A DNA stretch of 37,928 bases from Phycisphaerae bacterium. GTDB taxonomy: Bacteria > Planctomycetota > Phycisphaerae > Sedimentisphaerales > Anaerohalosphaeraceae. A program made the position numbers and the translations under genes. Numbering within the stretch: the first letter of the stretch is position 1; each line of letters starts with the position of its first letter. The notes under the pieces are model-generated. The model was not told the DNA's origin. It did not search any database and saw only the letters and a program-made list of their open reading frames with translations. Shown piece by piece: positions 6,454 through 37,928 of the stretch. The DNA is taken from NCBI GenBank assembly GCA_012729675.1, contig JAAYCR010000026.1, positions 1-37,928 of the forward strand. Reading direction: 5' to 3'.

Positions 6454-6535
6454 CAGTAAAAAATCGAAATTCAAAGCACGAAATTCGAAACAAATTCTAA
6501 TCTTCAAAACCCAAAACGATTTGTACAACAAAGTA
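6454..6535. repeat. Low-complexity spacer of 'gaaattcgaaa' type
   Basis: Between ubiB and nspC the DNA is A-rich and built from variants such as 'cgaaattcaaagcacgaaat' and 'cgaaacaaattct'. It codes for nothing recognisable and resembles the low-complexity spacer before 32662. Confidence 0.5.
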
Positions 6536-6547
6536 TGAGGCATAAAA

Positions 6548-7693
6548 TTGAACTATGACGTAAACCGCGTGCCCAGTCCGAGTTATTTGATTGATCTGGG
6601 GTTGTTGCGGAACAATTTGGAAGTGCTGGCGTCGGTGCAGGAGCGGACGGGGTGTTGGATTTTGCTTGCGCTCAAGGGGTTTGCGGCGTGGAGTACGTTC
6701 GGGCTGTGTCGGGAGTATCTGGCGGGGGCGGCGGCCAGCAGTCTGCATGAGGCCAAGCTGGCGCGGGAGTATTTTGACAAGGAAGTGCATCTGTGCGCCC
6801 CGGCCTACCGGGACGACGAGATGGACGACTACCTGCGGATTGTCGATCATATTGTGTTCAATTCGTTCAGCCAGTGGCGGCGGTATAAAGACAAGGTGCG
6901 GTCGGCGGGTCGCGGCATAGAATGCGGCCTGCGCGTCAATCCGATGCACTCGGAGGTCAAGACGAAGATTTACGACCCGTGCGCCCCCGGCTCGCGGCTG
7001 GGGATTCTGCCGGAGTTTTTCAATGCTGATGCGCTGGACGGCATCAACGGCCTGCACTTTCATACCCTGTGCGAACTGAACGCCGACTCGCTGCAGCGGA
7101 CGCTGCCGGCGGTAGAAAAACACTTCGGCGACATCATCCGGCGGATGGACTGGGTCAACTTCGGCGGCGGCCACCACATCACCCGGCCGGATTATGATGT
7201 CGATTTGCTGTGCAGTCTAATCTGCGATTTCAAGACCCGGTATCCCAACCTCAAGGCGATCTATCTGGAACCGGGCGAGGCGATCGCGCTCAATACCGGC
7301 GTCTTGGTCGCGACGGTGCTGGATGTCGTGTACAACGCGATGGATATTGCGATTCTGGATACCTCCGCCTCGGCGCACATGCCGGACGTGCTGGAGATGC
7401 CGTATCGACCTGCCATCGCCGGGGCGGACGAGCCGGGTAAAAAGCCGCACACGTACCGGCTGGCCGGGCCGACGTGCCTGGCGGGCGATGTCATCGGCGA
7501 TTATGCGTTCGACGCCCCGCTGAAGGTCGGCGATAAATTGGTGTTCGGCGATATGGCCCACTACACGATGGTCAAGAACACGATGTTCAACGGGATCAAT
7601 CTTCCAGACATCGTGTTGTACGACCCGGATACAGATCAGTACCGCGTCCAGCGGCACTTTACCTACGAGGATTTCAAGGGCCGACTATCATAA
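6548..7693 (+). CDS. nspC: Carboxynorspermidine decarboxylase
   Basis: 381 residues, standard for NspC, a fold-type III PLP decarboxylase. The PLP lysine is in LLALKGFAAWS (about K40). LHFHTLCE, VNFGGGHHI and LEPGEAIA form the phosphate- and PLP-binding loops, and GPTCLAGDVIGDY near residue 310 carries the catalytic cysteine of the second subunit. It decarboxylates carboxynorspermidine or carboxyspermidine to the polyamine, the second step after the dehydrogenase at 3040. TTG 6548 is chosen because GAGG at 6537-6540 lies 7 bases before it; the ATG at 6555 is out of frame. It follows ubiB by 94 bases, so it may share that transcript. The start codon is the only uncertain point. Confidence 0.93.
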   Translation: MNYDVNRVPSPSYLIDLGLLRNNLEVLASVQERTGCWILLALKGFAAWSTFGLCREYLAGAAASSLHEAKLAREYFDKEVHLCAPAYRDDEMDDYLRIVDHIVFNSFSQWRRYKDKVRSAGRGIECGLRVNPMHSEVKTKIYDPCAPGSRLGILPEFFNADALDGINGLHFHTLCELNADSLQRTLPAVEKHFGDIIRRMDWVNFGGGHHITRPDYDVDLLCSLICDFKTRYPNLKAIYLEPGEAIALNTGVLVATVLDVVYNAMDIAILDTSASAHMPDVLEMPYRPAIAGADEPGKKPHTYRLAGPTCLAGDVIGDYAFDAPLKVGDKLVFGDMAHYTMVKNTMFNGINLPDIVLYDPDTDQYRVQRHFTYEDFKGRLS

Positions 7694-7728
7694 AACAAAT
7701 TAAAAATCAAAGAGGAAAAACAAAAAAT

Positions 7729-8550
7729 ATGGCTGAGCAAAAATCGATGAGCGAGCGGTATCGGGTCGAGCCGGGACAGAAGGTCAAGCTGAGCAAGTGG
7801 GATCCGGCCGAGACGGGCGAATTTGACAGCAAGGGCAAGGCCCGTAAGGCGATGCAGAACAATCTGAAGCGGCTGGCGAAGCTGGAATATCTGCTGTATG
7901 CCGAGAGCAAGCGGTCGGTGCTGATCGTCCTGCAGGCGATGGACGCCGGCGGCAAGGATGGCACCATCCGCCACGTGATGGGGCCGCTGAACCCGCAAAG
8001 CTGCCGGGTGACCTCTTTTAAAGCGCCCAGCGCCGAAGAGTTGTCACGCGATTTTCTCTGGCGCATCCACAAGGCCGTCCCGGCTAAAGGCGAGATCGGA
8101 ATCTTCAACCGCTCGCACTATGAAGACGTGCTGATTGTGCGGGTCAAGAAGCTGGTCGAAAAGGCCGTCTGGTCCAAACGCTATCGGCAGATCAACGACT
8201 TTGAGCGGCTGCTCAGCGAAAACGGCGTGCATATCCTCAAGTTCTTTCTGCATATCAGCAAGGATGAGCAGCTCAAGCGGCTGCAATCGCGGCTGGACGA
8301 CCCGGACAAAAACTGGAAGATCACGCCCGCCGACGCCGAGGAACGCCAATACTGGGACGACTACGTCGCCGCCTACGAAGACGCCCTGACCCAATGCTCC
8401 ACGTCGTATGCGCCGTGGCACATCATTCCCGCCGACGCCAAGTGGTACCGCAATTTGGCGATTTCGGAGATACTGGTCGAGGCGTTCGAGGGGTTCGGGA
8501 TGCAATTCCCCAAACCGGCAGCAGACGTTGCGTCCATCAAGCTGAAGTGA
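7729..8550 (+). CDS. PPK2-family polyphosphate:nucleotide phosphotransferase
   Basis: 273 residues, a single-domain PPK2. The Walker A loop AMDAGGKDGT is at 70-79, and the Walker B-like GEIGIFNRSHYEDVL starts at 121, followed by the lid region rich in Arg/Lys. The family moves phosphate between inorganic polyphosphate and nucleotides (AMP, ADP or GDP level depending on subclass); the subclass cannot be fixed by eye. The gene lies 35 bases after nspC on the same strand, with an A-rich leader containing GAGG before ATG 7729. Its stop at 8550 is one base before a possible 39-residue ORF. Family confidence is very high; the direction of catalysis is not shown. Confidence 0.93.
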   Translation: MAEQKSMSERYRVEPGQKVKLSKWDPAETGEFDSKGKARKAMQNNLKRLAKLEYLLYAESKRSVLIVLQAMDAGGKDGTIRHVMGPLNPQSCRVTSFKAPSAEELSRDFLWRIHKAVPAKGEIGIFNRSHYEDVLIVRVKKLVEKAVWSKRYRQINDFERLLSENGVHILKFFLHISKDEQLKRLQSRLDDPDKNWKITPADAEERQYWDDYVAAYEDALTQCSTSYAPWHIIPADAKWYRNLAISEILVEAFEGFGMQFPKPAADVASIKLK

Positions 8551-8551
8551 T

Positions 8552-8671
8552 ATGCACGCACGTTTTGTTGTGCAAATAGATCGCTTTTGGCAGCAGGAAG
8601 ACGGCGATTATCTTTGGGAGATTGTGACGGACGGGCCGAAAGGCGTCGTAATCAGTCGGCAGGGGAGGTAG
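8552..8671 (+). CDS. Possible 39-residue protein after PPK2
   Basis: An ATG one base after the PPK2 stop opens a frame of 39 residues starting MHARFVVQIDRFWQQE and ending in a basic tail, closing with TAG at 8669-8671. The composition looks like a short beta-strand protein, but it is not recognised. Its last 20 bases overlap the convergent beta-helix gene. No separate ribosome site is seen; translation would depend on coupling to PPK2. It could be chance. Confidence 0.35.
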   Translation: MHARFVVQIDRFWQQEDGDYLWEIVTDGPKGVVISRQGR

Positions 8672-10715
8672 CGTCGCGCGGGCCGGCCAATGACGGGTCG
8701 AGGGAGCGAAAGCCCAGCTCCAGTGCGGGTGAATCGGGGCGCAGACGAAAGTCGCGGCCGGCGGCATCTACGAAACGCGGATCCGCGATCCGTGAGTTTC
8801 TGTCCTTGCCTGTGGTCTTCCAGTCTTCAAACGTCTTTCCGTTAAACCGCATCTGTTCAGGGGACTGTGTGGGATTATAATAGACATTCCAGTTCATCGT
8901 AAAGGTGCTGTCGGTCTTCTGCATCCCGCTGCTCGGGCGATAGTAAAAATCATACGGGACATCGTTCCACTTGTTATCCAGCAGTGTACCCTCTTCGAAA
9001 TAGACGATGTTGTTTTCAAAGTAGCAGCTCTGGTGCGGTTCGACGATGCTGCGGCTGAGCTGCTGGAGCCGTCCGAACGCAAAGATATTGTTGCGGACGG
9101 TAATCTCCTTGGCGTAGTGGATGTTGTAGCCGGCAAACTTGGTATCATAGACGATGTTGTCCTCGACGAGGATATGGCTGGAGCCTTCGTCGTTGTAGAT
9201 GCCCCAGCCGCCGTACCGATTCGCATCGACATCGTGGATGCGGTTGCCTCGCAGCACCGTGCCGGGCGAGACGCCGAGCGTATAAATTCCGCCCATATCC
9301 GACAGCAGCCCTTGCCCGATATGGTGAATGTGGTTGTAGGCAATCACATTATCCCGGCTGATGCTGCGCTGATAGCCCCAGTGCCAACCGACCGAGATGC
9401 CCGTATAGAAGCCGTGATGAATCGCGTTGTGCTCGACGGTGTTGCCAAAGGTATGCATCAGGAGCACTCCCACCGCCGAATGATAGACCAGCCCGTATGG
9501 CCCGATGCGGTTGTCGGCGATCCGGTTATTTCCCGTGCGCAGCAGCGGGTGGGCGTTTTCGCCGCCCCCATTGACGCGAAAGCCGCCGGCGGCCGTATCG
9601 ACGATCCGGTTGCGCGTAAACTCATTGTCGGAACAGCCTTCCAGCACCTCCACGGCATAGGTTCCCAGCCGGGCGAAGGAACACCGGTCAAACCGGACGT
9701 GCCGGGCGCCTTTGAGGGAGACGGCCGCCGGAACGGTGGTCGAGGCCTGGGCGTTGTTGCAGTCGCCCGGCTTCAACTGCCATTGCGTATGCGCAAACTC
9801 AATGTCCTCGAACCGGATATGCTCGACATAGCGCCTGCCGAGGGGGTCGCCTTCGAGTCGCAGCAGCGCCGGGGCAACGGGAGCGATCACCTCGGCGGTC
9901 TCCATCGTCTCGCCCGGCAGCGGCCGGTAGTACAGGACGCCTTTGCTCCGGTCAAGATACCACTCGCCGGGTGCATCGAGAGCCTCGAAGAGGTTTTCTA
10001 CAATATATCTGGCCCCATCGCCGGAAAAGTCGTCGGTAAACCGCTTGCCGGACTTGTGCTGAAAGGTCACGATATGGCTGTCGTCGTTGATGTTTTCAAT
10101 CGGCAGGTGTGTATCCGTCCAGAAATGATAAACGATGACCTTGGCGTCGGCCAGATGGGTCCAGGCGGGATTCAGATCGCCCGGCCGATAGCCGAACCGC
10201 TGCGAAGGAGTGTTGTACGGCACGTTGTCGCCGCCGTCCGGCAAGGCCGCCACGCGAAAAAAGCCCTCGTTCGGCGTGCGGGCGCGAAGGCGGCGCCGGC
10301 CGTTGACGAAAAGCTGCGTAAAATACGACTGTCCCGCCGCAACATCGTCCAGGGTGGTCTTCCAGATGTAGTCGTCGTGCTTGACCCAGCCCGTAATCCG
10401 CCGCCCGCCGGTGACCAACGCCGTTTCTCCTTCATACGCCCGGACTCTCACAGGCGTCCGTTCCGTCCCCGAATGTTCCGGGCGCAGCACCAGCGGTTCG
10501 GTAATCGCATACTCCCCCCCGCGGAGAACTACCGTAACGGCCTGATCCTTTGCCGCCTGCCGCACCTGTTCAAACGCCCGCGCCACCGTCCGCACCGGAG
10601 CATCCAGCGTCGTGCCCTGGGCCTGGTCATCGCCTTGCGGCGACACATAAATGACCTGCTCGGCCGCAACAATCCCGAAACCCAGCACCCACAAAATCGC
10701 TGTCCATCGCTTCAT
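8652..10715 (-). CDS. Secreted right-handed parallel beta-helix protein, GH141-like
   Basis: 687 residues. A signal peptide spans about 1-18 (hydrophobic core AILWVLGFGIVAAE). Next is the start module IYVSPQGDDQAQGTTLDAPV with VVLRGGEYAITEPLVL, typical of polysaccharide-active beta-helix proteins. An N-terminal sandwich carries FTQLFVNGRRRLRARTPNEG, and a long coil region from about residue 300 repeats units such as HIRFEDIEF, NRIVDTAAGGF, NAIHHGFYTGISVG and NIVYDTKFAGYNI. This architecture fits GH141-type (fucosidase/xylanase) or related polysaccharide enzymes acting outside the cytoplasm. It starts 40 bases after the stop of the large DUF362 gene, so they probably form one transcript. The exact CAZy family and substrate are not provable by eye. 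Confidence 0.8.
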   Translation of the reverse strand: MKRWTAILWVLGFGIVAAEQVIYVSPQGDDQAQGTTLDAPVRTVARAFEQVRQAAKDQAVTVVLRGGEYAITEPLVLRPEHSGTERTPVRVRAYEGETALVTGGRRITGWVKHDDYIWKTTLDDVAAGQSYFTQLFVNGRRRLRARTPNEGFFRVAALPDGGDNVPYNTPSQRFGYRPGDLNPAWTHLADAKVIVYHFWTDTHLPIENINDDSHIVTFQHKSGKRFTDDFSGDGARYIVENLFEALDAPGEWYLDRSKGVLYYRPLPGETMETAEVIAPVAPALLRLEGDPLGRRYVEHIRFEDIEFAHTQWQLKPGDCNNAQASTTVPAAVSLKGARHVRFDRCSFARLGTYAVEVLEGCSDNEFTRNRIVDTAAGGFRVNGGGENAHPLLRTGNNRIADNRIGPYGLVYHSAVGVLLMHTFGNTVEHNAIHHGFYTGISVGWHWGYQRSISRDNVIAYNHIHHIGQGLLSDMGGIYTLGVSPGTVLRGNRIHDVDANRYGGWGIYNDEGSSHILVEDNIVYDTKFAGYNIHYAKEITVRNNIFAFGRLQQLSRSIVEPHQSCYFENNIVYFEEGTLLDNKWNDVPYDFYYRPSSGMQKTDSTFTMNWNVYYNPTQSPEQMRFNGKTFEDWKTTGKDRNSRIADPRFVDAAGRDFRLRPDSPALELGFRSLDPSLAGPRDATSPAD

Positions 10716-10755
10716 CGCATTTCACAGGGCGGACACGGCCCACCTCGCCGGGCTG

Positions 10756-13700
10756 TCAGGGGGCTATTTTCTTGACCACAAAGCCGATAATGACCTGACG
10801 ATTTATGGAGCTGTTATAGGTCGCGCTGGGAATTTCCGCGACCCCTGAAGCCGCTTTATAGCCTGCCGCTGCGGTGCCTCCGTTCGTCCCGTCGCCAAAT
10901 TGCTGATCGAAGCCTTCCACAAAATCGTTGTTAAGCGTATAGGAGTTTTGATTGCCGCACGTTACCGCGACAAAAACCAGATCTCCTTCCGCGGTCAAAA
11001 GATCAGCGGTCGTAATGGTAGTGCTGCTCGTTGTGTCCGCGGCAGCGCAGTCTCCAAACAAGTTCGTCTGGTCAACGTTTTCGAGGAATACACTGGTATA
11101 GACAACGGCGGCGGGCGTGGTATCCCAGACCGGAACGAACATGTTGTCGGTCGCGGCAGCGATCCCGGCCTCATCCAGAATGAACGCTGTAACATTGGCC
11201 GTATAGCCTGTGCCGACACTCTGGCCGATGATTGGAGTCATCGCCTGGCCGCCGTATGTGACGGAATTGAGGGTTACCGTTCCGTTGGAATGTTCAGCGT
11301 GCGCAAATAACAGCAATGCCCGATTGCTGCCCGGTTCCACATCACGGGTGGTGCCGTCGCTCCAGTCGCCCAGGATGGTCGTATCAGGGATTGGTGCAGC
11401 AAGACCAAAATACACATCATCGACCCAGATTTCTGCGTAGGTGGTATCTGTATTCTGTGCCCCGGTGTCGGCTCCGTTTTCATCTAACTCCATCGTAGCG
11501 CCTTCTTCAAACCAAAAGGACACGTCCATGGTACCTTCGGAGGCAGTATAGAGGCCTTCCATATATTGCCAGCCGTCGGACTCGTTTACGACAAGTAAAT
11601 CAACGCCATACCATCGGTTTCCTGCACCTGAGCCGTCAGGCAGATTGTCCCGTTCAATCGTCATCTTAACCGGCGCCAGCCCGTCGGCACCGGCGTTTGT
11701 AACCTTAACCCACGCTGAAATATAATAAGTCTGGTTCGCTTGCAGATCGACGAGATCACCTTTTGCTATCTGGATGCCGTGCCAGCGTTGGGTTTTGTTG
11801 TAATGGCGTGCACTATATGTCCCGCTGTGGGCATCAGCGATTGTGAGTTCAACAGTCCCGCCGCTGCGGGGTTGCCAGGGGGTAAGAAGTCCACTTCCAC
11901 TGCCTTCAAAGGTACCGTTGTCCAGCAGGTTTACCGGGAGTGGGGCCTCGTCGGTTGTCGCTGATGCCGGAATGGACCATCCCGTTTCATTTGGAGTTGG
12001 ATAGGCGTTGTCACGGGCTTTGACCTGGAAGGTGTAGGATGTTTTGGGCTTGAGCTTCGGCGTTGTATAACTCGGGCTTATCTGCCATGTACTGCTAACA
12101 GAAGGGTCTGTCGTACATTCGAAATAGTACTCAACGGTCGGACTGACAAGGTCTGTCGCCGTAACTGCCGTCATGGTTATCCTGGTATCAGCGGTTGCGG
12201 CAGGTTCGCCGCCGTCGGCCCATTCCATCGGAGTCGGACTCGGGGGGTCAAAATCGGGAACCGGCGGCGTCCATCGCGCTCCGCGAACGTACATTGCGAG
12301 GCTGTAGACTCCATTCTGACAGGTCATATAGAGGGTTTTCCCCGCAGATCCTCCGAACGTTACATTGAAGACGTCGGTCGGTGTATCAATAAACTCCAGC
12401 AGTTCACCCTGCGGTGAGACAATCCAGACGCCGCCGAAACCGCTGAAGTATAAATTCCCAAACTCATCGATGGTCATGCCGTCGGGGACATTGTTCGGAG
12501 AGGGCAGAGTGTCCGGTTTGAAAAATACTGTGCCGGCATCGAGCGTGCCGTCCAGGGCGATATTGAAGACCCGCCATTGACCGTTCCCGCCGCTGCCGCT
12601 TTCAGCGACATACAGTTTTTTACCGTTCAGGCTTGCGATAACCCCATTTGGTTTATCCAGGGCGTTATTCACTCGCGTTACGGTGCCATCCGGTTCGAGC
12701 AGGAAGATGCCCTGTTGTGCAATTGGAAGCCCGTCCCAGGAAGGTGTTGTGAAGTAAATATTTCCGTTGTCAAGCTGGCAGATATCATTCGGCTTTCCAA
12801 ACCAAATATCCGGCCATGAGGCAGCGTCCGCCAGGACAATCGGATCGCCCGGTCCGGAGGCATCGATGCGAAGACTTCTTATCTGCTTCGTACTTTCGTC
12901 GCACGTGAGCAATCGGCCGTCAATCGATAAAAACGTACCATTGGTCTGAGGCGAAGGATTCAGCCATGCGGTGACATTGCCGGGCGAGTTCAGCCGTAAG
13001 ATTTGTTGGTAGGTGTAGTTGCTTGCTTTGGAAAAATAAAGCCTATTGTCGCCGGGATTCCAGGTTGGGCCTTCGAAAGTAACCCCCCCGGTCGAGTCCG
13101 AGTACGCCACTTCGAGCGTTGCTCCGGGCTGAATCAAATAGGGGACGAAATAGCTGAGCCAGTCCCCGGTCAGAACGTACAGATCCAGCACATTAATAAT
13201 CCCGTCGGCGGGTATTGAGATGTCACAGGCGGGATTCCAGTTGTCATCGCCGGGCTGACTGTTCCAGGCCGCCGCGAAAATCGCAAAATCTTTCAGGTCT
13301 ACGGTACCGTCTCTGTACAAATCACCGACGAGCGTCGGGCCGGTCACCAACTCGATGCCGGTTCCGTTAAGCGGGTCGAGATTTCGACTGTATTGTTTGT
13401 CAATGGCGTTGTTCCAGTGCTCATGCACACCTAAGCTTTTCGTGAGTCCCCCTGTGTGAGCCGGATCATAGTTTGTTCCGGAAGGCGGATTGGGAATCAG
13501 CGCCGCTTCGTGCAGGTAATCGGCGGCGCCGGATTTCTGCGGGTAACTGTTCAAATCATTGGGATTTGAGGGATCTGCGTCCCATTCATAGTCCATGAAA
13601 TCGAAAGCCACCGAATCGGCCGCAATCGGATCCTGCGACAGGAAGATACTGCTGGGCCAATGGCCATTGAAGGGGGCCATATTCCATCGAATCGGGTGAG

Positions 13701-15000
13701 AATCCCAGCTTCGGCCGGCGTATAATCCGTCGAGCAGGGTCAGCATGGTTTTGCCTCCAAGCTGCGGATGCCCCAACAAATCAACAATCGCCCGATAGTG
13801 CCCCATCCCGGGCCTTTCAGTCGCTCTTGTTAAGTGCATATCATAATACTCCTGGGGACCGCTCCACGCGGTTGGAGCTCTCATCAAAGAACCATAGTGG
13901 TTTTTGCCCCCGAGCGTAATGCCGCCGTCATTATGGCTTTTCAGAATAGGGCAGTTAATAAAGTAATCCGCCTGTGCAAAATGCGTCGGGATATAATCCG
14001 TCTTAGTCTCTGTGTGGTGAGAGGGATCAGGATCGCTCCAATAGAAAGGAGCCGTGGGATCACCGGAGACCTCTACTCGGCCGTATTCATCATAACCGTA
14101 CGACGACAAATACACAACTCCCGGACACGCGGCTGACACCATGTCGTACCAATAATTGGCGATTCCTCCCTGGGGATCACCAATGCTGATATCTCCGGGA
14201 TTTACACCTACGACATCTGTCAGTTGCTTAAGAAGGGCTATCACAAGCTGAGGGGCGTTATCAATCTGGTCATAACGATCCGAAGGTTTTCTTCCGCCAT
14301 TCCCCATCGTCAATACACTATTAATTTTGATCGCGATTTTTTGACCGGGTGTGTAGCCGACGTACCCTCGACCCATTTGATGGTTAAACTGTTTAAAGAT
14401 CGCATCCCAGGCCAGAGCGTCCGTATTCTTCCCTGTCAGGGCTTGCAGTGCATTCGAGAGCATGTTGCTCACAACGACCGGGTCTGTGCTGACGTCCTCG
14501 TACCAGTATGGGGGTCTTGTATTGCCGTCATCCCCAAGCCAGTTGGCCGCAGCCGGGTCATGAATCCATGCGACACGTCCCGGAAAGATGCCTTTTCCCT
14601 GGCCCATCGGTTCGTTGGCTACAATCGGCTCATGGGCATAGGCGACCTGCTGGTCAGAATGGTTCATCGCCATCCAGAGAAATGTGACACTCACTGCTAT
14701 AAACGCCGCGGCCAGAACTTTCCGTCCCTGTGCACGCAGAAGAATGGCTTTGCGAAGAACGGTAACGGAACCGGCCAGACCAATCAGCCAGATCACAAAG
14801 GCCGACGCCAGGGGAAAGGCCGCACGTTGACACGGGTATGTTGCTCGCGATGGCTTTGGGATGACGCGGATTAAAAACCAGAGTAATGCAAACATCCCCG
14901 TAATGGGAAACAGCCATTTTAGCCAGGGGATGGTTTTTTTTGTGTGAGTGGTTTCGTCTGTGTGAGACATGGACGATGTATGTTTGTCGTTTGAAACCAT
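10756..15000 (-). CDS. Giant modular protein: membrane helices, DUF362, dockerin-like, SMP-30, FN3, CBM-like
   Basis: About 1414 residues. Three membrane helices lie near 27-47, 60-82 and 94-112. DUF362 spans about 135-548 (KIAIKINSVLTMGNGG, CPILKSHNDGGITLGGKNHYG, DPIAADSVAFDFMDYEW). A dockerin-type pair of calcium loops follows at about 552-620 (DLYRDGTVDLKDFAIFAAAW and a second DGIINVLDLYVLTGDW). An SMP-30/gluconolactonase-like beta propeller is at about 625-900 (GKPNDICQLDNGNIYFT, PDGMTIDEFGNLYFSGFGG), an FN3-like domain at about 905-1020, a CBM_4_9-like sandwich at about 1022-1197 (NLLDNGTFEG, YYISAWVKV), and an unrecognised C-terminal domain. ATG 15000 has GAAAGGG eight bases upstream; GTG 15093 has nothing, so it is rejected. 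It likely acts at the cell surface on sugars. The substrate is unknown. Confidence 0.8.
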   Translation of the reverse strand: MVSNDKHTSSMSHTDETTHTKKTIPWLKWLFPITGMFALLWFLIRVIPKPSRATYPCQRAAFPLASAFVIWLIGLAGSVTVLRKAILLRAQGRKVLAAAFIAVSVTFLWMAMNHSDQQVAYAHEPIVANEPMGQGKGIFPGRVAWIHDPAAANWLGDDGNTRPPYWYEDVSTDPVVVSNMLSNALQALTGKNTDALAWDAIFKQFNHQMGRGYVGYTPGQKIAIKINSVLTMGNGGRKPSDRYDQIDNAPQLVIALLKQLTDVVGVNPGDISIGDPQGGIANYWYDMVSAACPGVVYLSSYGYDEYGRVEVSGDPTAPFYWSDPDPSHHTETKTDYIPTHFAQADYFINCPILKSHNDGGITLGGKNHYGSLMRAPTAWSGPQEYYDMHLTRATERPGMGHYRAIVDLLGHPQLGGKTMLTLLDGLYAGRSWDSHPIRWNMAPFNGHWPSSIFLSQDPIAADSVAFDFMDYEWDADPSNPNDLNSYPQKSGAADYLHEAALIPNPPSGTNYDPAHTGGLTKSLGVHEHWNNAIDKQYSRNLDPLNGTGIELVTGPTLVGDLYRDGTVDLKDFAIFAAAWNSQPGDDNWNPACDISIPADGIINVLDLYVLTGDWLSYFVPYLIQPGATLEVAYSDSTGGVTFEGPTWNPGDNRLYFSKASNYTYQQILRLNSPGNVTAWLNPSPQTNGTFLSIDGRLLTCDESTKQIRSLRIDASGPGDPIVLADAASWPDIWFGKPNDICQLDNGNIYFTTPSWDGLPIAQQGIFLLEPDGTVTRVNNALDKPNGVIASLNGKKLYVAESGSGGNGQWRVFNIALDGTLDAGTVFFKPDTLPSPNNVPDGMTIDEFGNLYFSGFGGVWIVSPQGELLEFIDTPTDVFNVTFGGSAGKTLYMTCQNGVYSLAMYVRGARWTPPVPDFDPPSPTPMEWADGGEPAATADTRITMTAVTATDLVSPTVEYYFECTTDPSVSSTWQISPSYTTPKLKPKTSYTFQVKARDNAYPTPNETGWSIPASATTDEAPLPVNLLDNGTFEGSGSGLLTPWQPRSGGTVELTIADAHSGTYSARHYNKTQRWHGIQIAKGDLVDLQANQTYYISAWVKVTNAGADGLAPVKMTIERDNLPDGSGAGNRWYGVDLLVVNESDGWQYMEGLYTASEGTMDVSFWFEEGATMELDENGADTGAQNTDTTYAEIWVDDVYFGLAAPIPDTTILGDWSDGTTRDVEPGSNRALLLFAHAEHSNGTVTLNSVTYGGQAMTPIIGQSVGTGYTANVTAFILDEAGIAAATDNMFVPVWDTTPAAVVYTSVFLENVDQTNLFGDCAAADTTSSTTITTADLLTAEGDLVFVAVTCGNQNSYTLNNDFVEGFDQQFGDGTNGGTAAAGYKAASGVAEIPSATYNSSINRQVIIGFVVKKIAP

Positions 15001-15217
15001 ATTTGTGACCCTTTCTCTTACTCTGGTCTGCTTCAGCGGTGTCAACACATCTTCTTTAGCGGCAAATGAAGCAAACGGGATTAATGTTTGCACCTTTTAA
15101 TTGACCACACTTTACGACGATTCAACACAACGGCAAACAAGATAAATATGTTTGTCGTCTCAATTCAGAACGTAACCCCACGGTGATCCTGTATAAACAA
15201 CCCCTTGGTCTGACAAA

Positions 15218-15241
15218 AACAAGCTCAAGAACAAGCTCAAG
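15218..15241. repeat. Perfect tandem 12-mer in the leader of the DUF362 gene
   Basis: AACAAGCTCAAG occurs twice without a gap (15218-15229 and 15230-15241), inside the presumed 5' untranslated region of the large minus-strand gene. Confidence 0.85.
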
Positions 15242-15261
15242 GTCATCGCGGCCTTCACTAA

Positions 15262-15281
15262 TATAATCAGTTATAATCAGT
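15262..15281. repeat. Perfect tandem 10-mer at the predicted transcription start
   Basis: TATAATCAGT occurs twice back to back (15262-15271, 15272-15281), just downstream of the minus-strand promoter at 15296-15324. The position suits a repressor binding site; this is inference. Confidence 0.75.
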
Positions 15282-15295
15282 GAAAACTTAACCTT

Positions 15296-15324
15296 ATTAT
15301 AAACAACACAAAGAAAATGGTCAA
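15296..15324 (-). promoter_or_regulatory. Strong sigma70-type promoter for the DUF362/beta-helix genes
   Basis: On the minus strand TTGACC (15319-15324) and a perfect TATAAT (15296-15301) are separated by 17 bases. Transcription would start near 15289, leaving a leader of roughly 290 bases before ATG 15000. Confidence 0.75.
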
Positions 15325-15460
15325 GTAAAAAATAAGAAATTTTGAGACGGTGTGTATACATATCGCTTTGTATTCAGTTTAAGGATAGAAGATGTACTCT
15401 TTAATTAATTTACGCAAAACAAACACAACACCCACAAGTGGTATCGGAGTGTAAAAACAG

Positions 15461-15488
15461 TTGCAACGAGTTTGTCAGTTGCTATAAT
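15461..15488 (+). promoter_or_regulatory. Sigma70-type promoter for greA
   Basis: TTGCAA (15461-15466) and a perfect TATAAT (15483-15488) have a 16-base spacer. The predicted leader to ATG 15631 is about 137 bases. Confidence 0.7.
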
Positions 15489-15600
15489 CGGCCAACCGTC
15501 GGCGGCGGCACAGGCTTGGGCCGACAAGACAATTGCGTCTCGTTTTTGAGACTGCGTTTTTTCATAATTTATTTAGAATTCAGTACATAGGATTTACTTT

Positions 15601-15613
15601 GCGGCTCTGCCGC
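15601..15613 (+). promoter_or_regulatory. Small hairpin just before the greA ribosome site
   Basis: GCGGC-TCT-GCCGC forms a 5-bp stem ending three bases before GAGGA at 15617-15621, the likely ribosome site for ATG 15631. Confidence 0.4.
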
Positions 15614-15630
15614 GATGAGGAGATGTTATA

Positions 15631-16113
15631 ATGCATGATATTATGCCGATTTCGCAGACGGGAAGTGAAAAGCTCCGGGAAGAGCTTGGCGAACTGGAAC
15701 AGGAAGTGGTCCTGGTCCGCCAGCGCGTGGCCGAGGCCCGTGAACAGGGCGACCTGCGCGAAAACGGCGAATACATCTACGGCCGCCAGCAGTTGGGCTT
15801 TATCGAAGGCCGCATGGCCGAAATCCGCGGCAAACTGAACTATTCCGAGACCATTGATTGCACCCAGGTTCCCTGCGACAAGGCCGGGTTCGGCACCGTG
15901 GTCACGCTGCGCGACCTGGAGACCCAAAAAAAGACCGTCTATCACCTGCTCGGCCCCTACGACGCCGACCTGACCGACGACAGCATTTCCATCCTTTCGC
16001 CCATCGGCGACGCGCTGCTCGGCCTGACCCCCGGCGACAAAGTCTCGGTCAACATCCCCCGCGGCCTCATCCATTTCGAACTGCTCGAAATCACCCCGTC
16101 CCCCATCAAATAA
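15631..16113 (+). CDS. greA: GreA/GreB-family transcript cleavage factor
   Basis: 160 residues, the usual GreA length. The N-terminal half (about 8-75) is an antiparallel coiled coil whose tip carries the acidic signature EQGDLRENGEYIYGR (residues 38-52). These residues reach the RNA polymerase active site to stimulate cleavage of backtracked RNA. The C-terminal FKBP-like domain ends in SPIGDALLGLTPGDKVSVNI, the conserved closing motif. GAGGA at 15617-15621 is nine bases before ATG 15631; a second in-frame ATG (residue 5) is possible. The consensus tip NAEY is NGEY here, a small deviation. It is a single-gene unit with its own promoter. The RHS remnant array begins directly after its stop. 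Confidence 0.92.
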   Translation: MHDIMPISQTGSEKLREELGELEQEVVLVRQRVAEAREQGDLRENGEYIYGRQQLGFIEGRMAEIRGKLNYSETIDCTQVPCDKAGFGTVVTLRDLETQKKTVYHLLGPYDADLTDDSISILSPIGDALLGLTPGDKVSVNIPRGLIHFELLEITPSPIK

Positions 16114-16417
16114 CGCATCCCCGGCCAAGGGCTGCGGAACTGTATGAATGGTCGTGGGCATAATACCGCATCGTCAGCGGCATTCCTGCAAGGTGTGTAT
16201 TCCGAATCAAGACCTCGTCAATATAGTTGCCGTAGGTGTACCACTGGCGGCACGTCGTATCGTCGGTGTATTCGGCCGGAATCTGCCACTGGTCGTTATT
16301 AACGAATCGTGTTGTCTTTTCAGGCCTGTTCAATATCGTCAATCTTTTTGATTGGTCGGATAAAGCATCCGAACTCGTTTCATTTTCCCAATAATGAAAA
16401 GCATACAATAGATACAA
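16106..16417 (-). pseudogene. RHS core remnant (third copy), truncated at both ends
   Basis: In a frame of about 100 codons, the middle part NNDQWQIPAEYTDDTTCRQW through YYAHDHSYSSAALG (about 16130-16303) matches the RHS core encoded near 18940-19100. At DNA level 16240-16297 matches 19043-19100 with one mismatch. The sequence before and after is unrelated, and there is no tip, no core end motif and no ribosome site. It is a leftover of recombination and ends within the last bases of greA. Confidence 0.75.
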
Positions 16418-16799
16418 AAATCGCGGCGGTAATTAAAATCGCCAAAACCCAAACAGTTGCCGCCCTTAAAAGGAAAGGTTCTTTTTCATGACAGAGCTTT
16501 CCTTTGACATTTGAGCCATCGGAAATTACCCTTACTTGATGTCTTCCTTTCAAACGAACGATCACCGTCAGAATAACAAATAATACGGCTGAAAATAACC
16601 CGAGGATATTACACATCCTCAGGGCATAATGACCTGACAGGTCTTCTCCTGAAAAATAATTAATCGAAATCTCCTCTTGAAAAGGAATTTCCTGCCGCAG
16701 AGCTGAGTAAAAATATCTATCATAAGCCTTTGATATTATTGGGAGCACACAGAAATATGCTAAAAAAACTCCCAAGAGAACTGCTCTTAAATTATTCAT
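16380..16799 (-). CDS. Small membrane protein, candidate partner (immunity) of the preceding RHS tip
   Basis: 139 residues with three predicted membrane helices (about 4-26, 65-86 and 112-136) and a basic loop after the second helix. The family is not recognised. ATG 16799 is preceded by GGAG eight bases upstream; the longer TTG start has nothing. It begins 40 bases after the stop of the RHS tip at 16839-17837 on the same strand, and is AT-rich compared with the RHS core. Small genes directly behind RHS or other polymorphic-toxin tips usually encode immunity proteins, and membrane immunity proteins are common; here that is inference from position only. Its 3' end overlaps the RHS remnant. Confidence 0.6.
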   Translation of the reverse strand: MNNLRAVLLGVFLAYFCVLPIISKAYDRYFYSALRQEIPFQEEISINYFSGEDLSGHYALRMCNILGLFSAVLFVILTVIVRLKGRHQVRVISDGSNVKGKLCHEKEPFLLRAATVWVLAILITAAIFVSIVCFSLLGK

Positions 16800-16838
16800 A
16801 AACAAATCTCCAGTAGACCCTCGCTTGTTACTCGCATT

Positions 16839-17837
16839 TTAATAATCTCCGTAGTCAATCTCTATTGAACCTTCAGGGCAAAAGTCGCAATCGGTTTCGA
16901 ATGTTGCTAATTTAAAATTTTTCATCTCATCCAAATACCACCATGCAAATGCCGCCGCATCAGCCGCTGTTTCTGCAGTAAGACAAGCTGCGTATGCTCC
17001 GACCCAGCCTACCCCACCAGGGCCCAAACACGCCGCTTGGCATGCTTGTTTAAGCACAGGAATATGTGGACAATCATCAAAGCACCCTGCAAGTGCTGCG
17101 TCAGCAGCTGCCCTACAAGCATCACCAGCTTCGTGAGAGGCAGCTAATAAATATTTAAAGTGTTCCCTAGAGGAATTGGCTAACTTATCATAACGATCAT
17201 TGTCCAAACACGTTGCCAAACCGGAAGGATCTTTTAGATTTATGGCATTGTTATTAACATACGAATAAACATTCATACCGGTTTTCATTTGGAAAAGAGG
17301 GGAATTCTTAAAAAATAAATTGGATGGACTCAGCCCCAACGGATCATGCTGCATAAAGCGTCCCAGTTGGGGGCTGTAGTCGCGGTGGCGGTAGTGCATG
17401 TGGTGGAGGGTGCCGTTGTCGAGGATGTCCAGTTGGCGGCCGGTGAACGTGTATGGGTTGCCGTGCTGGGAAGAGGTTAGAGGGGAGAAGTTAGAGGTTA
17501 GAACTTGCACTTTGCCGTAGGCGTCGTATTCGTAGCGTTCGAGGACATCGCCGTCGTCGTCCAGCAGGGCGACGGGGCTGTACAGGTGGTCGTGGGCGTA
17601 GTAAGTGTCGTCCGCCCCGTCGTTCATGACCAAGACCTCATCGATGGTGTTGCCATAAACATAGTACCTCTGCAAACTACTGTACTCGTCATACGCGGCC
17701 AGAATCTGCCACTGGTCGTTGTAGTAGTAAAACGTCGTTTCCATCGCGGCTGCATCGTATTTGCCAATCCGCCGCCCCAACGCGTCGTAGGCGTACTGCG
17801 CCGCCGTCATTATTTTATTGTTTGTGCAGATTCCCAT
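16839..17837 (-). CDS. 5'-truncated RHS core plus cysteine-rich tip (module B)
   Basis: 332 residues. From about residue 12 (AAQYAYDALGRRIGKYDAAA) it matches RHS module A. It continues through YYYNDQWQILA and RYEYDAYGKV to the RHS-associated core end MHYRHRDYSPQLGRFMQHDP, then NVYSYVNNNAINLKDPSGL. The last about 127 residues (206-332) are unique and carry nine cysteines, including GCFDDC and TDCDFC. Full RHS proteins are over 1000 residues with a secretion domain; here the N-terminal repeats are missing, ATG 17837 has no ribosome site, and the first 11 residues are unrelated. This fits an orphan RHS tip cassette, silent unless recombined into a full gene. The tip activity is not recognised. 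Confidence 0.75.
   Translation of the reverse strand: MGICTNNKIMTAAQYAYDALGRRIGKYDAAAMETTFYYYNDQWQILAAYDEYSSLQRYYVYGNTIDEVLVMNDGADDTYYAHDHLYSPVALLDDDGDVLERYEYDAYGKVQVLTSNFSPLTSSQHGNPYTFTGRQLDILDNGTLHHMHYRHRDYSPQLGRFMQHDPLGLSPSNLFFKNSPLFQMKTGMNVYSYVNNNAINLKDPSGLATCLDNDRYDKLANSSREHFKYLLAASHEAGDACRAAADAALAGCFDDCPHIPVLKQACQAACLGPGGVGWVGAYAACLTAETAADAAAFAWWYLDEMKNFKLATFETDCDFCPEGSIEIDYGDY
17701..17770. repeat. RHS core direct repeat, copy in module B
   Basis: These 70 bases match 19081-19150 in module A with one mismatch (at 17751), despite different flanking codons. Another shared stretch, 33 identical bases, is at 17377-17409 and 18712-18744. Confidence 0.85.
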
Positions 17838-35105: not shown

Positions 35106-36917
35106 CTATCGTCTTTTCCCGGTACGGGATTGAGCATGGCGGATTTGGGAGAGAAGTTTGAGCTTGCCGCGGGCGGCGAGGTAGTTTTCGAGAAGCCGAC
35201 TGTTCTGCTTGTCGTAGTACTGCAACAGGGCCATTTGGAGTTTTTTGTCGCTGTGGCCTTTGGGGATGACGATGGTCTTGCGTTTGGGACTGCGTCCCGA
35301 GACGAACATCGCCGTCGAAAGGGCCAGCGGCGCGGGAACGAAGTCCTGCACCTGTCGCGGCCGCCAGTTCCGCGCGATGAGGTACTCGGTCAGTTTGAGG
35401 GCGTCGTCGGCCGAGCAGCCGGGATGGCTGCTGATAAAGTACGGAATGAGGTATTGGTTTTTGCCGGCGCGGGCAGAGGCCTCGTTGAAGCGGGCCTCAA
35501 ATTCTTCAAACACTTCGAAAGCGGGTTTTCGCATCAAGCTCAGGACGTGCGGGCAGTAGTGTTCGGGGGCGACCTTGAGGTGTCCGCCGACGAAGTGAGC
35601 GGCCAGAAGCCGCATATAGTCCGGGCTTTTGATGGCCAGGTCGTGGCGGATGCCGGAGGCGACATAGCTTTGGAGTTTTCGCTTTTGACCGGATTGCCAG
35701 CTCAGCACACCTTCCATAAGTTCGATGAGGCGGGCGTGGTCGGCGGGCAGTTTGGGGCAGGGGGTGGGGAACAGGCAGCTATCGCGTCCGCAGGTCGCGG
35801 CATCAGCACAGGTCATGCCGTACATATTGGCCGTTGGACCGCCGATGTCGGGAATCGTGCCTTTGAAGTCTCGATGTTGTGCGATCCGGCCTGCTTCGGC
35901 CAAAATGGAATCTTGGGAACGCGAGGCGATCTGTTTGCCCTGATGGAAGTAGATGGCGCAAAAGCTGCACCCGCCGAAGCAGCCGCGATGGGTGGTGATG
36001 CTGAAACGCACCGGTTCCAGCGCGGCGATGCCGCCGTCGCGGTCGTATATCGGATGGGCGCTGCGGGTAAAGGGCAGCGCGTAGAGCGTGTCGAGGTCGG
36101 CTTCGGCAAGCGGCGCGGCAGGGGGGGTCACGACGATGCGTCCGGGGTCTTGTTCCTGAATGACGGGTTTGCCGCCGGGATGTGCCTGCTTTTGGTAGGC
36201 AAGCTGGAAATCCATAAACAGCTCGGCTTTTGTTTCGAGTGCTTCGCGGCCGGGCAGCGTGACGGCGTTGTGCGGCGGGGCAACATCGCGCACAACACGG
36301 TAGGCAATGCCGGGGATGTCGGTCATCGCATCAATGCTGCGGCCTGCCGCCAGCCTGCGGGCGATTTCCAGCGTGGCGTGTTCGCCCATCCCGTGGATGA
36401 GCAGATCGGCCTTGGCATCGACGAGGACGGAGCGTTTGAGGCGGTCTTCGACGTAGTCGTAGTGCACCAGTCGCCGGAGACTGGCTTCGAGGCCCCCCAG
36501 TACAATGGGAACGTCTTTGAAGGCCTCGCGGGCACGGGCGGCATAGACCAAGAGCGGCCGGTCGGGACGCAGATCGGTGCGTCCGCCGGGACTGTAGATG
36601 TCCTTCGGGCGGCGGTGCCCCATGGAGGCGTAGGCGTTCAGCCGAGAATCAATACAGCCGGAGGTGATGCCCCAGAACAGCCGCGGCCGCCCCATCGCTC
36701 GGAACGGCTCGACGCTGCGCCAGTCCGGCTGGGCCAGAATGGCGACACGGAAGCCATGATGGGTCAGCCACCGGCCAATGAGGGCCACGCCAAAGGACGG
36801 GTGATCCACATAGGCGTCTCCGGTGACAAGGGTGACATCGGGCGCATCCCAGCCCAAGGCGTCGATATCCGCTCGACTGACGGGTAAATAGGTTTTTATA
36901 TTACCATTGAAAGACAA
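35106..36917 (-). CDS. YgiQ-family radical SAM protein
   Basis: About 603 residues. The N-terminal domain has the family signature [20 protein letters not shown] and [15 protein letters not shown]. The radical SAM core follows with [20 protein letters not shown]; the cysteines are spaced CxxxCxxC, binding the 4Fe-4S cluster that cleaves SAM. Later [18 protein letters not shown] and [15 protein letters not shown] are typical of YgiQ, and the end is basic. The substrate is unknown. TTG 36917 is proposed as start because AAAGGA lies 6 bases upstream; ATG 36989 is possible but has no ribosome site. Gene order gives no operon; the next minus-strand gene is 226 bases away. Confidence 0.9.
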
Positions 36918-37016
36918 TAAGTATCCTTTTTTTGGGCCTAAATTCAGATTCAATATTGACAATCTTGACAGTTTATACAACAAAGTCATGTTTGTCGAGT
37001 GCGGCGCATGTTTTTA

Positions 37017-37036
37017 GGCTGGCGAAAGCCGGCTTG
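37017..37036. other. GNRA-capped hairpin before the tRNA half
   Basis: GCTGGC-GAAA-GCCGGC forms a 6-bp stem with a GAAA tetraloop, extendable by two weak pairs. It lies between the YgiQ gene and the tRNA start. Confidence 0.35.
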
Positions 37037-37050
37037 TCGCGTCGATTTGG

Positions 37051-37087
37051 GGGCCTGTAGCTCAGCGGGAGAGCAGGGGACTCATAA
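37051..37087 (+). tRNA. 5' half of a CAT-anticodon tRNA, interrupted at the anticodon loop
   Basis: The acceptor strand is GGGCCTG, bases 8-9 TA, D stem GCTC/GAGC with loop AGCGGGA, A26, anticodon 5' stem GGGGA and loop CTCATAA (anticodon CAT). The matching 3' stem, variable loop and T arm are absent: the following GCCAATCC does not pair with GGGGA. So only 37 bases of the tRNA remain; the break is at the end of the anticodon loop, a known target of tyrosine integrases. It is a Met- or Ile2-type tRNA by anticodon. Confidence 0.65.
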
Positions 37088-37129
37088 GCCAATCCTGCGT
37101 CCCTAACCCTTTTTAAGAAAAAGGCTTAT
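37084..37129. repeat. Inverted repeat and hairpin at the tRNA break
   Basis: ATAAGCC (37084-37090) and GGCTTAT (37123-37129) form a 7-bp inverted repeat starting in the tRNA loop. Inside it CCTTTTT and AAAAAGG form a second hairpin (37108-37124). These may be integrase core sites. Confidence 0.5.
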
Positions 37130-37140
37130 ATGTGACTTTT

Positions 37141-37233
37141 GAGTCAATAATAAGGATTTCAAGTCAGTAACAAGTCAACCGAAACGTTATTATCAGGTGG
37201 TTTGCAACTGGCAACTGACGCAAAAATGACGCA
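37141..37233. repeat. Short direct repeats, possible integrase arm sites
   Basis: CAAGTCA occurs at 37160-37166 and 37171-37177 with GAGTCA at 37141-37146. GCAACTG is in tandem at 37204-37217. TGACGCA occurs at 37216-37222 and 37227-37233. Such arrays beside a tRNA and integrase gene fit arm-type binding sites; this is inference. No gene is seen from 36990 to 37284. Confidence 0.5.
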
Positions 37234-37284
37234 GGTTTGGTTACCCTGATTTCACTCAATCGCTTGACTTTTTACTTTCTCGGC

Positions 37285-37611
37285 CTAAGCGTTCACAAAC
37301 AACTGGTAGCGTTGCTCGAACTGCAACCGGAGGCGGGCGATGAGGATGTGGTCGCCGAAGCTGAGCGGCATCAGTTCGTTTTTCGAGAGTGTCACATCGT
37401 TGACAAACACATCCGTAAGGTCTGTGAGGTTGTCCAGATTAAATCGCCCGTTCATATAGAAAATCCCCGCGTGAACCGGCTCCAGACCTCGATCCTCAAA
37501 ATATAGCGAGCACTCCGGCGCCGAGCCCATGTTGCGGCCCGATATCACTCTCAAGCAACTCTGTGAGCAGGTCATTCGTTTCAAGAAAACAGAGTGCAAA
37601 GCGGCCACCAT
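37285..37611 (-). CDS. FHA-domain fragment, truncated at its 5' end
   Basis: About 108 codons. From about residue 20 the sequence reads as a forkhead-associated (FHA) phosphopeptide-binding domain: VISGRNMGSAPECSLYF carries a GR-type site, EPVHAGIFYMNGRFNLDNL the SxxH-like strand, VFVNDVTL the N residue, and PLSFGDHILIARLRLQFE the end. The first 20 codons are the complement of the integrase gene and are not FHA-like. It is a truncated gene, probably cut by insertion of the element; an ordinary start is missing. It may not be expressed. Confidence 0.45.
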   Translation of the reverse strand: MVAALHSVFLKRMTCSQSCLRVISGRNMGSAPECSLYFEDRGLEPVHAGIFYMNGRFNLDNLTDLTDVFVNDVTLSKNELMPLSFGDHILIARLRLQFEQRYQLFVNA

Positions 37612-37928
37612 GGATGGCTACGAGATAGTCAAACAACAATTGTGTGCTTACTTTGGACCCAACACTAAAATCACTACCATCAACAAGCAAAAGGCAATGG
37701 AGTTTCTCTCAACCCGAAAAATCACATTTTCTACCCACCTGAAAGCAGGCAAGACAGAACTCTCTCCCTGGGGCGCAAAACTGTTCCTCAAGAATGGGTC
37801 AGTATTTTTCAATATGGCTGTCGAGTGGGAATACATCAAGAAGAATCCCTTCGCCAAAATTAAACTGTCCACTCCAATCAGCCATGACTGGCATTTCATT
37901 ACGCATCAGGAATTTCAAGCACTCCTGA
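37529..37928 (+). CDS. Tyrosine recombinase/integrase, N-terminal part, runs off the window
   Basis: An open frame without stop to the window end, 133 codons seen. MLRPDITLKQLCEQVIRFKK and AATMDGYEIVKQQLCAYFG are the helices of the core-binding (SAM-like) domain of phage-type integrases. FNMAVEWEYIKKNPFAKIKL is the classic join to the catalytic domain, whose first residues HFITHQEFQALL close the window. The catalytic R-H-R-H-Y residues would lie beyond. ATG 37529 is provisional, with no ribosome site; the frame is open back to a TGA at 37472. It sits beside the broken tRNA, which is its probable attachment site. Confidence 0.75.
   Translation, partial: MLRPDITLKQLCEQVIRFKKTECKAATMDGYEIVKQQLCAYFGPNTKITTINKQKAMEFLSTRKITFSTHLKAGKTELSPWGAKLFLKNGSVFFNMAVEWEYIKKNPFAKIKLSTPISHDWHFITHQEFQALL

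What the first reader, a model, noticed from the sequence alone, without database searches (positions are those of the whole stretch)
37051..37928. Half tRNA plus integrase: end of an integrated element
A CAT tRNA stops exactly at the anticodon loop; then an inverted repeat, clustered short direct repeats, a broken FHA gene and a tyrosine recombinase follow. An intact tRNA is not restored on this side. Either the element splits the tRNA, or it duplicated the 5' half; most known elements instead carry the 3' part.
Basis: partly seen in the sequence, partly recalled or inferred. Interest (0 to 1): 0.65.

Follow-up and report, generated by a model that had tools for sequence, protein, structure and literature searches.

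The report
Element end splitting a transfer-RNA gene
A stretch of mobile DNA has inserted into the anticodon loop of a bacterium's isoleucine transfer-RNA gene and left a displaced front half of that gene beside a damaged integrase gene: a known but uncommon mirror image of the usual way such elements insert.

Summary
Window 37051-37087 is the 5' half (nt 1 to the end of the anticodon loop) of tRNA-Ile(CAU). The left side is native chromosome: a relative has the same ygiQ-tRNA arrangement with an intact tRNA. After the loop come 197 bp of AT-rich DNA, a truncated FHA gene and an integrase that lacks its arm-binding N-terminus; then the contig ends. No 3' half and no other tRNA-Ile(CAU) was found in the 99.9%-complete assembly. 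This is best read as one end of an element inserted by a tyrosine integrase with crossover in the anticodon loop. This end carries no tRNA 3' half, so the usual 3'-restoring design is excluded. Likeliest is the 5'-half design: the element carries a copy of nt 1-38 and rebuilds the tRNA at its far, unassembled end. A complete 12.3-kb element in another genome of the class does exactly this at the same tRNA and base, and nine IMG/VR contigs carry the same 5' half, each with an integrase within 1.6 kb. The main rival, tRNA-dependent lysogeny, would leave the same left junction. It is a new member of a known minority kind (159 of 3919 Islander islands), not a new system.

The parts
35106..36989 (-). 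YgiQ-type radical SAM protein gene, native chromosomal flank of the tRNA
   Evidence: Pfam Radical_SAM_N E 8.5e-110; in G004 the orthologue (65% identity) lies in the same divergent position next to an intact tRNA-Ile(CAU)
37051..37087 (+). 5' half of tRNA-Ile(CAU), nt 1 to the last base of the anticodon loop; displaced chromosomal fragment at the element's left junction (attL)
   Evidence: 36/37 identity to the intact tRNA in same-genus G036; fMet and elongator Met are intact elsewhere; no other copy or 3' half found in the assembly
37081..37087 (+). CTCATAA anticodon loop, inferred 7-bp crossover (overlap) region
   Evidence: identity to the native tRNA ends at its 3' edge; in the 3'-type relative L072 the att repeat begins at the loop's 5' edge; inference
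37088..37284 (.). element end (P' arm): AT-rich, hairpin 37104-37128, five AGTCA words, candidate arm-type sites
   Evidence: function inferred, repeat enrichment not significant over all pentamers
37285..37530 (-). FHA-domain gene fragment, 5' end missing
   Evidence: Pfam FHA E 8e-8 over domain positions 3-66 of 67; upstream codons run antisense into the integrase
37529..37928 (+). tyrosine integrase fragment: SAM-like core-binding domain only; arm-binding N-terminus absent, catalytic part beyond the contig end
   Evidence: Pfam Phage_int_SAM_5 E 1.1e-4; 31-40% identity to 400-460 aa integrases with PF00589 and, in three of five, Arm-DNA-bind_4

Best explanation
This is the left junction (attL) of an element that a tyrosine integrase inserted into the only tRNA-Ile(CAU) gene found, with crossover in the 7-bp anticodon loop. 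The chromosome's own 5' half was cut off and stayed here. The element is of the 5'-half type: its attP carried tRNA nt 1-38, so the functional tRNA is rebuilt at the far end from the element-borne 5' half plus the native 3' half, read from a promoter in the element. The integrase and FHA genes next to the junction are both truncated where they meet (about 37505-37530), so this copy has probably decayed and could not excise by itself. Shown: the half gene, its exact break, the native left flank, the broken integrase, and the absence of the 3' half and of any other copy from the assembly. Inferred: restoration at the unseen far end, the promoter, loss of mobility.
For: Native left side: ygiQ and tRNA-Ile(CAU) adjacent in G004, with the tRNA intact. 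Break exactly at the 3' edge of the anticodon loop. Integrase relatives: 7 of 10 loci have a tRNA gene within 1.5 kb, and in L072 the 43-bp att repeat starts at the 5' edge of the anticodon loop, so this family cuts in the loop. Complete analogue in G441: displaced 5' half 17589-17552, 12.3-kb element with an integrase, Terminase_4 and S49 peptidase, intact tRNA 5260-5188, and a direct repeat of exactly nt 1-38. Recurrence: 9 IMG/VR contigs carry the Ile2 5' half ending at CTCATAA, all with a tyrosine integrase within 1.6 kb; in L106, L107 and L108 it lies well inside long contigs beside phage genes, as an attP would. The tRNA should be essential: ATA is used 12 times in 2136 codons of six window genes and no other AUA reader was found. 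Precedent: 159 of 3919 Islander islands have a 5' fragment.
Against: The far end is not in the assembly: no restored tRNA, no 3' half, no right flank. attL looks the same whether attP carried the whole 5' half or only the loop. The integrase lies on the side away from the inferred 5' half; in G441 and most of the nine viral loci it lies on the 5'-half side. A relative of this integrase uses the 3' design (L072). The head-to-head truncation at about 37505-37530 could be an assembly join. The genome is a fragmented assembly, probably a MAG.
Confidence: 0.6

Rival explanations
1. tRNA-dependent integration: attP shares only about 7-10 bp (the loop) with attB, the tRNA is not rebuilt at either end, and the element supplies its own tRNA-Ile(CAU).
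For: Known for actinobacteriophages, including Gordonia phages OneUp and Mollymur at tRNA-Ile2-CAT with 9-10 bp cores (PMC10865867). attL would look just like this one. No complete tRNA-Ile(CAU) was found in the assembly.
Against: No element-borne tRNA seen, though the element is almost wholly unassembled. The complete analogue in the same class (G441) and the viral loci carry the full 5' half from nt 1, which only makes sense for rebuilding the tRNA.
Confidence: 0.2
2. Assembly artefact: the contig tail (from 37088, or from about 37505-37530) is joined wrongly.
For: The genome is in 96 contigs and the site is within 0.9 kb of a contig end. FHA and integrase are both truncated at the same place.
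Against: A random misjoin would not stop exactly at the edge of the anticodon loop next to an integrase. Independent loci show the same break.
Confidence: 0.12
3. Dead remnant: the element was largely deleted after insertion, the tRNA function having been taken over elsewhere, and only a 5' half and gene debris remain.
For: Truncated FHA and integrase; one change in the D-loop of the half tRNA. The tRNA-Ile(CAU) context differs between genomes of the family.
Against: No replacement tRNA-Ile(CAU) found in the assembly; the half gene is otherwise unmutated.
Confidence: 0.06
4. Intron-containing tRNA (group I intron as in Azoarcus tRNA-Ile) or a split, trans-spliced tRNA.
For: The break lies in the anticodon loop of tRNA-Ile(CAU), a known group I intron site (own knowledge).
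Against: No group I intron at E<=10; the upstream exon would end in A, not U (own knowledge of group I splicing); an integrase follows; no 3' half within 841 bp or elsewhere in the assembly.
Confidence: 0.02

Closest known systems
Genomic islands with a 5' tDNA fragment (Islander: 159 of 3919; Zhao and Williams 2002, known here only by citation)
   Same: Displaced 5' tRNA fragment at one end, tyrosine integrase, crossover in the anticodon loop
   Different: The restored tRNA at the far end is not seen here; the integrase is truncated and on the other side of the att core from the inferred 5' half
12.3-kb phage-like element in G441:C20 (same class)
   Same: Same tRNA, same break after CTCATAA, displaced 5' half
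   Different: Far end present with an intact tRNA; its integrase shows no clear relation to this one (17% identity over 64 residues, E 0.047) and sits divergently upstream of the restored tRNA
pTN3-like archaeal integrases (attB = 5' half of a tRNA gene)
   Same: 5' half duplicated, tRNA expressed from an element promoter (PMC8371274)
   Different: Archaeal; no sequence comparison made
tRNA-dependent lysogeny (mycobacterial and Gordonia phages)
   Same: A tRNA-Ile2-CAT gene is split in some cases and not rebuilt at the junction seen
   Different: No element-encoded tRNA seen here; only one junction known
3'-type tRNA element of the same integrase family (L072, tRNA-Pro)
   Same: Integrase about 32% identical over the shared domain; crossover at the anticodon loop
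   Different: It carries the 3' half and places the integrase's 3' end next to the restored tRNA

Membership tests
tRNA-integrated element (tyrosine integrase) | Chromosomal tRNA gene interrupted at a known crossover sublocation | tested here: met
   Break at the anticodon loop edge; intact syntenic gene in G004
tRNA-integrated element (tyrosine integrase) | Integrase gene of the tyrosine family inside the element | tested here: inconclusive
   Only the core-binding domain is present, N-terminally truncated; the catalytic domain is beyond the contig end but present in relatives
Usual 3'-restoring island | Element end next to the chromosomal 5' half carries the tRNA 3' half, giving an intact tRNA | tested here: not met
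   No tRNA found at the junction; sequence diverges after the loop
5'-fragment island | Displaced 5' tRNA fragment at one end | tested here: met
   37051-37087
5'-fragment island | Intact tRNA at the other end, with direct repeat of the 5' half | not testable with these tools
   Far end absent from the assembly; met in the analogue G441
tRNA-dependent lysogeny | Core of about 10 bp only, tRNA not rebuilt at either junction | not testable with these tools
   Needs attR or attP
[quoted passage not shown]
   None found in the assembly, but nearly all of the element is missing
Group I intron in tRNA-Ile(CAU) | Conserved intron core next to the 5' exon | tested here: not met
   No Rfam match at E<=10 in 36800-37928

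The most novel reading that the evidence does not exclude
The tRNA is not rebuilt at either junction and this planctomycete lives on an element-encoded tRNA-Ile(CAU): tRNA-dependent integration outside the actinobacteriophages, with the host dependent on the element for an essential tRNA.
Probability: 0.18. Interest if true: 0.55.

Novelty: new member of a known kind. Interest (0 to 1): 0.32.

Why it matters
It adds a planctomycete case of the minority design in which an element carries the front half of a tRNA gene. The search it prompted shows that tRNA-Ile(CAU) is cut this way repeatedly: in G441 and in nine viral contigs with several different integrases. If confirmed, it also suggests that one integrase family can serve both designs, since a relative of this integrase carries the 3' half; the near-symmetry of the anticodon stem-loop could allow that. 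Islands of this kind at contig ends are easily missed in MAGs.

Tried and rejected
Searching the genome for the 3' half with three patterns gave only other tRNAs and chance matches. Finding the right flank: the genes right of the tRNA in G004 (GH20-like, AnmK-like) have no match in G000; the gene right of the tRNA in G036 (diacylglycerol-kinase-like) lies in G000 at C61 downstream of what reads as leuS, without a tRNA, so synteny does not give the far end. Close relatives of the integrase: none above about 40% identity in genome contigs, viral contigs, plasmids or phages. Junction DNA in IMG/VR and the element end in phages: none. Two pattern hits (L095, L096) are intact Met tRNAs, not split genes. 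L104, a further viral hit, has no tRNA features and is taken as chance. Repeat cluster as proof of arm sites: not significant over all pentamers. Group I intron: rejected. Half tRNAs near the other integrase relatives within the fetched DNA: none except L072 and, in distant hits, possible short 3' pieces in L075 and L076.

Full report
What is there. The window is the whole of contig C14 (37,928 bp) of a 2.80-Mb genome in 96 contigs, 99.9% complete. At 37051-37087 lies GGGCCTGTAGCTCAGCGGGAGAGCAGGGGACTCATAA. Same-family genomes hold intact tRNAs that start with nearly this sequence and continue TCCCTTGGTC...GGGCCCA; G036, in the same genus, differs by one base in 37. In the window identity ends at the last base of the anticodon loop. 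ARAGORN sees no tRNA there.

Which tRNA. The genome has two other CAT tRNAs, on C40 and C26. From their sequences C26 is the initiator (three consecutive G-C pairs in the anticodon stem) and C40 the elongator Met; this assignment rests on established tRNA features and my own knowledge of other bacteria. The split one is therefore the tRNA-Ile(CAU) that reads AUA. AUA occurs 12 times in 2136 codons of six window genes. No other copy was found, so the gene should be essential.

Which side is chromosome. In G004, of another genus in the family, a YgiQ-type gene (65% identical to the window's 35106-36989) lies divergently beside an intact tRNA-Ile(CAU). The left side of the break is thus native, and the right side is the insertion. 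GC falls from about 0.65 in ygiQ to 0.44-0.53 in the last kilobase.

What follows the break. 37088-37284 is AT-rich with a hairpin at 37104-37128 and five AGTCA words. An FHA domain on the minus strand runs from 37530 to 37339 (E 8e-8) and seems to lack its first strands. The integrase begins at 37529 and shows only the SAM-like core-binding domain before the contig ends. Full-length relatives of 400-460 aa have about 70 more residues in front, an arm-binding domain by Pfam in three of five, and a PF00589 catalytic domain behind. No frame upstream encodes that front part. Both genes are cut where they meet, so this end has been rearranged, or the assembly has a join there.

Comparison with relatives of the integrase. 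In the order, relatives at 31-40% identity were found in six other genomes and once more in this genome. Seven of the ten loci examined, one of them a weak hit, have a tRNA gene within 1.5 kb, six of these with the integrase's 3' end facing the tRNA's 3' end. In one (G044, L072) a 43-bp repeat of the tRNA-Pro 3' part, starting at the anticodon loop's 5' edge, lies 12.2 kb away. That is the usual 3' design with crossover at the anticodon loop. The window's break is at the other edge of the same loop.

A complete analogue. Among 397 genomes of the class, the search for an Ile2 5' half not followed by T hit only four: the window, two intact Met tRNAs, and G441. G441:C20 has the 5' half at 17589-17552 (minus strand). 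The intact tRNA is at 5260-5188, and the repeat is exactly nt 1-38. Between them lie an integrase divergent from the restored tRNA, a phage terminase small subunit and an S49 peptidase. By eye a TTGACA, 17-nt spacer and TAAATG precede the restored tRNA in the element's DNA; the consensus scan did not call it.

Recurrence in viruses. A 20-base pattern for the Ile2 5' half not followed by T gives 13 IMG/VR stretches. Three are intact tRNAs, one looks like chance, and nine are 5' halves ending at CTCATAA. Each of the nine has a tyrosine-integrase-like ORF within 1.6 kb: Pfam-confirmed in five, read from the translated sequence in L109, L111, L112 and L115. In L106, L107 and L108 the half lies well inside long contigs beside phage genes such as tail, endolysin, DnaB, RecE and RecT, as an attP would. 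L114 has the geometry of the window (host-like gene hrcA, half tRNA, then an integrase reading away), with inovirus-type genes further off. So the 3' design is far commoner, in line with Islander's 3760 to 159 (PMC4383910).

Mechanism. Most likely the integrase exchanged strands in the 7-bp anticodon loop of attB and of an attP that carried tRNA nt 1-38. The old 5' half stayed at attL (seen) and the tRNA was rebuilt at attR (not seen). attL alone cannot show whether attP held the whole 5' half. The alternative is tRNA-dependent lysogeny, known from phages at tRNA-Ile2-CAT with 9-10 bp cores (PMC10865867). The G441 and viral loci tilt the balance to the 5'-half design, at about 0.6 against 0.2. 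The missing far end fits the known undercount of islands in fragmented genomes and MAGs (PMC9580842).

Verdict. The finding is correct, and it is a new, probably decayed, member of a known minority kind of tRNA-integrated element.

Noticed in passing
G441:C20 (L099) 5188-17589: Complete 12.3-kb phage-like element in tRNA-Ile(CAU) that duplicates exactly nt 1-38 and rebuilds the tRNA at the integrase end.
   Followed up: yes
L106, L107, L108, L109, L111, L112, L114, L115, L116: Nine IMG/VR contigs carry an Ile2 5' half ending at CTCATAA, all with a tyrosine integrase within 1.6 kb; a recurrent 5'-type attachment site with several different integrases.
   Followed up: partly
L053 (G000:C54) and L054 (G000:C70): Two more integrase genes in the same genome face the 3' ends of tRNA-Gly(CCC) and tRNA-Val(TAC): likely ordinary 3'-type elements, far ends not found in the DNA fetched.
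   Followed up: partly
L063, L064, L065: The neighbourhood of tRNA-Ile(CAU) differs between genomes of one family (ygiQ/GH20-like, GH57-like/diacylglycerol-kinase-like, MurJ-like), so this gene sits at a rearrangement-prone place.
   Followed up: no
window 37505-37530: FHA and integrase fragments are truncated head to head at the same point, a rearrangement scar or an assembly join.
   Followed up: partly
L114 1-9394: Half tRNA-Ile(CAU) between an hrcA gene and an integrase, with resolvase, Zot and G2P-type replication genes beyond hrcA (inovirus-like).
   Followed up: no
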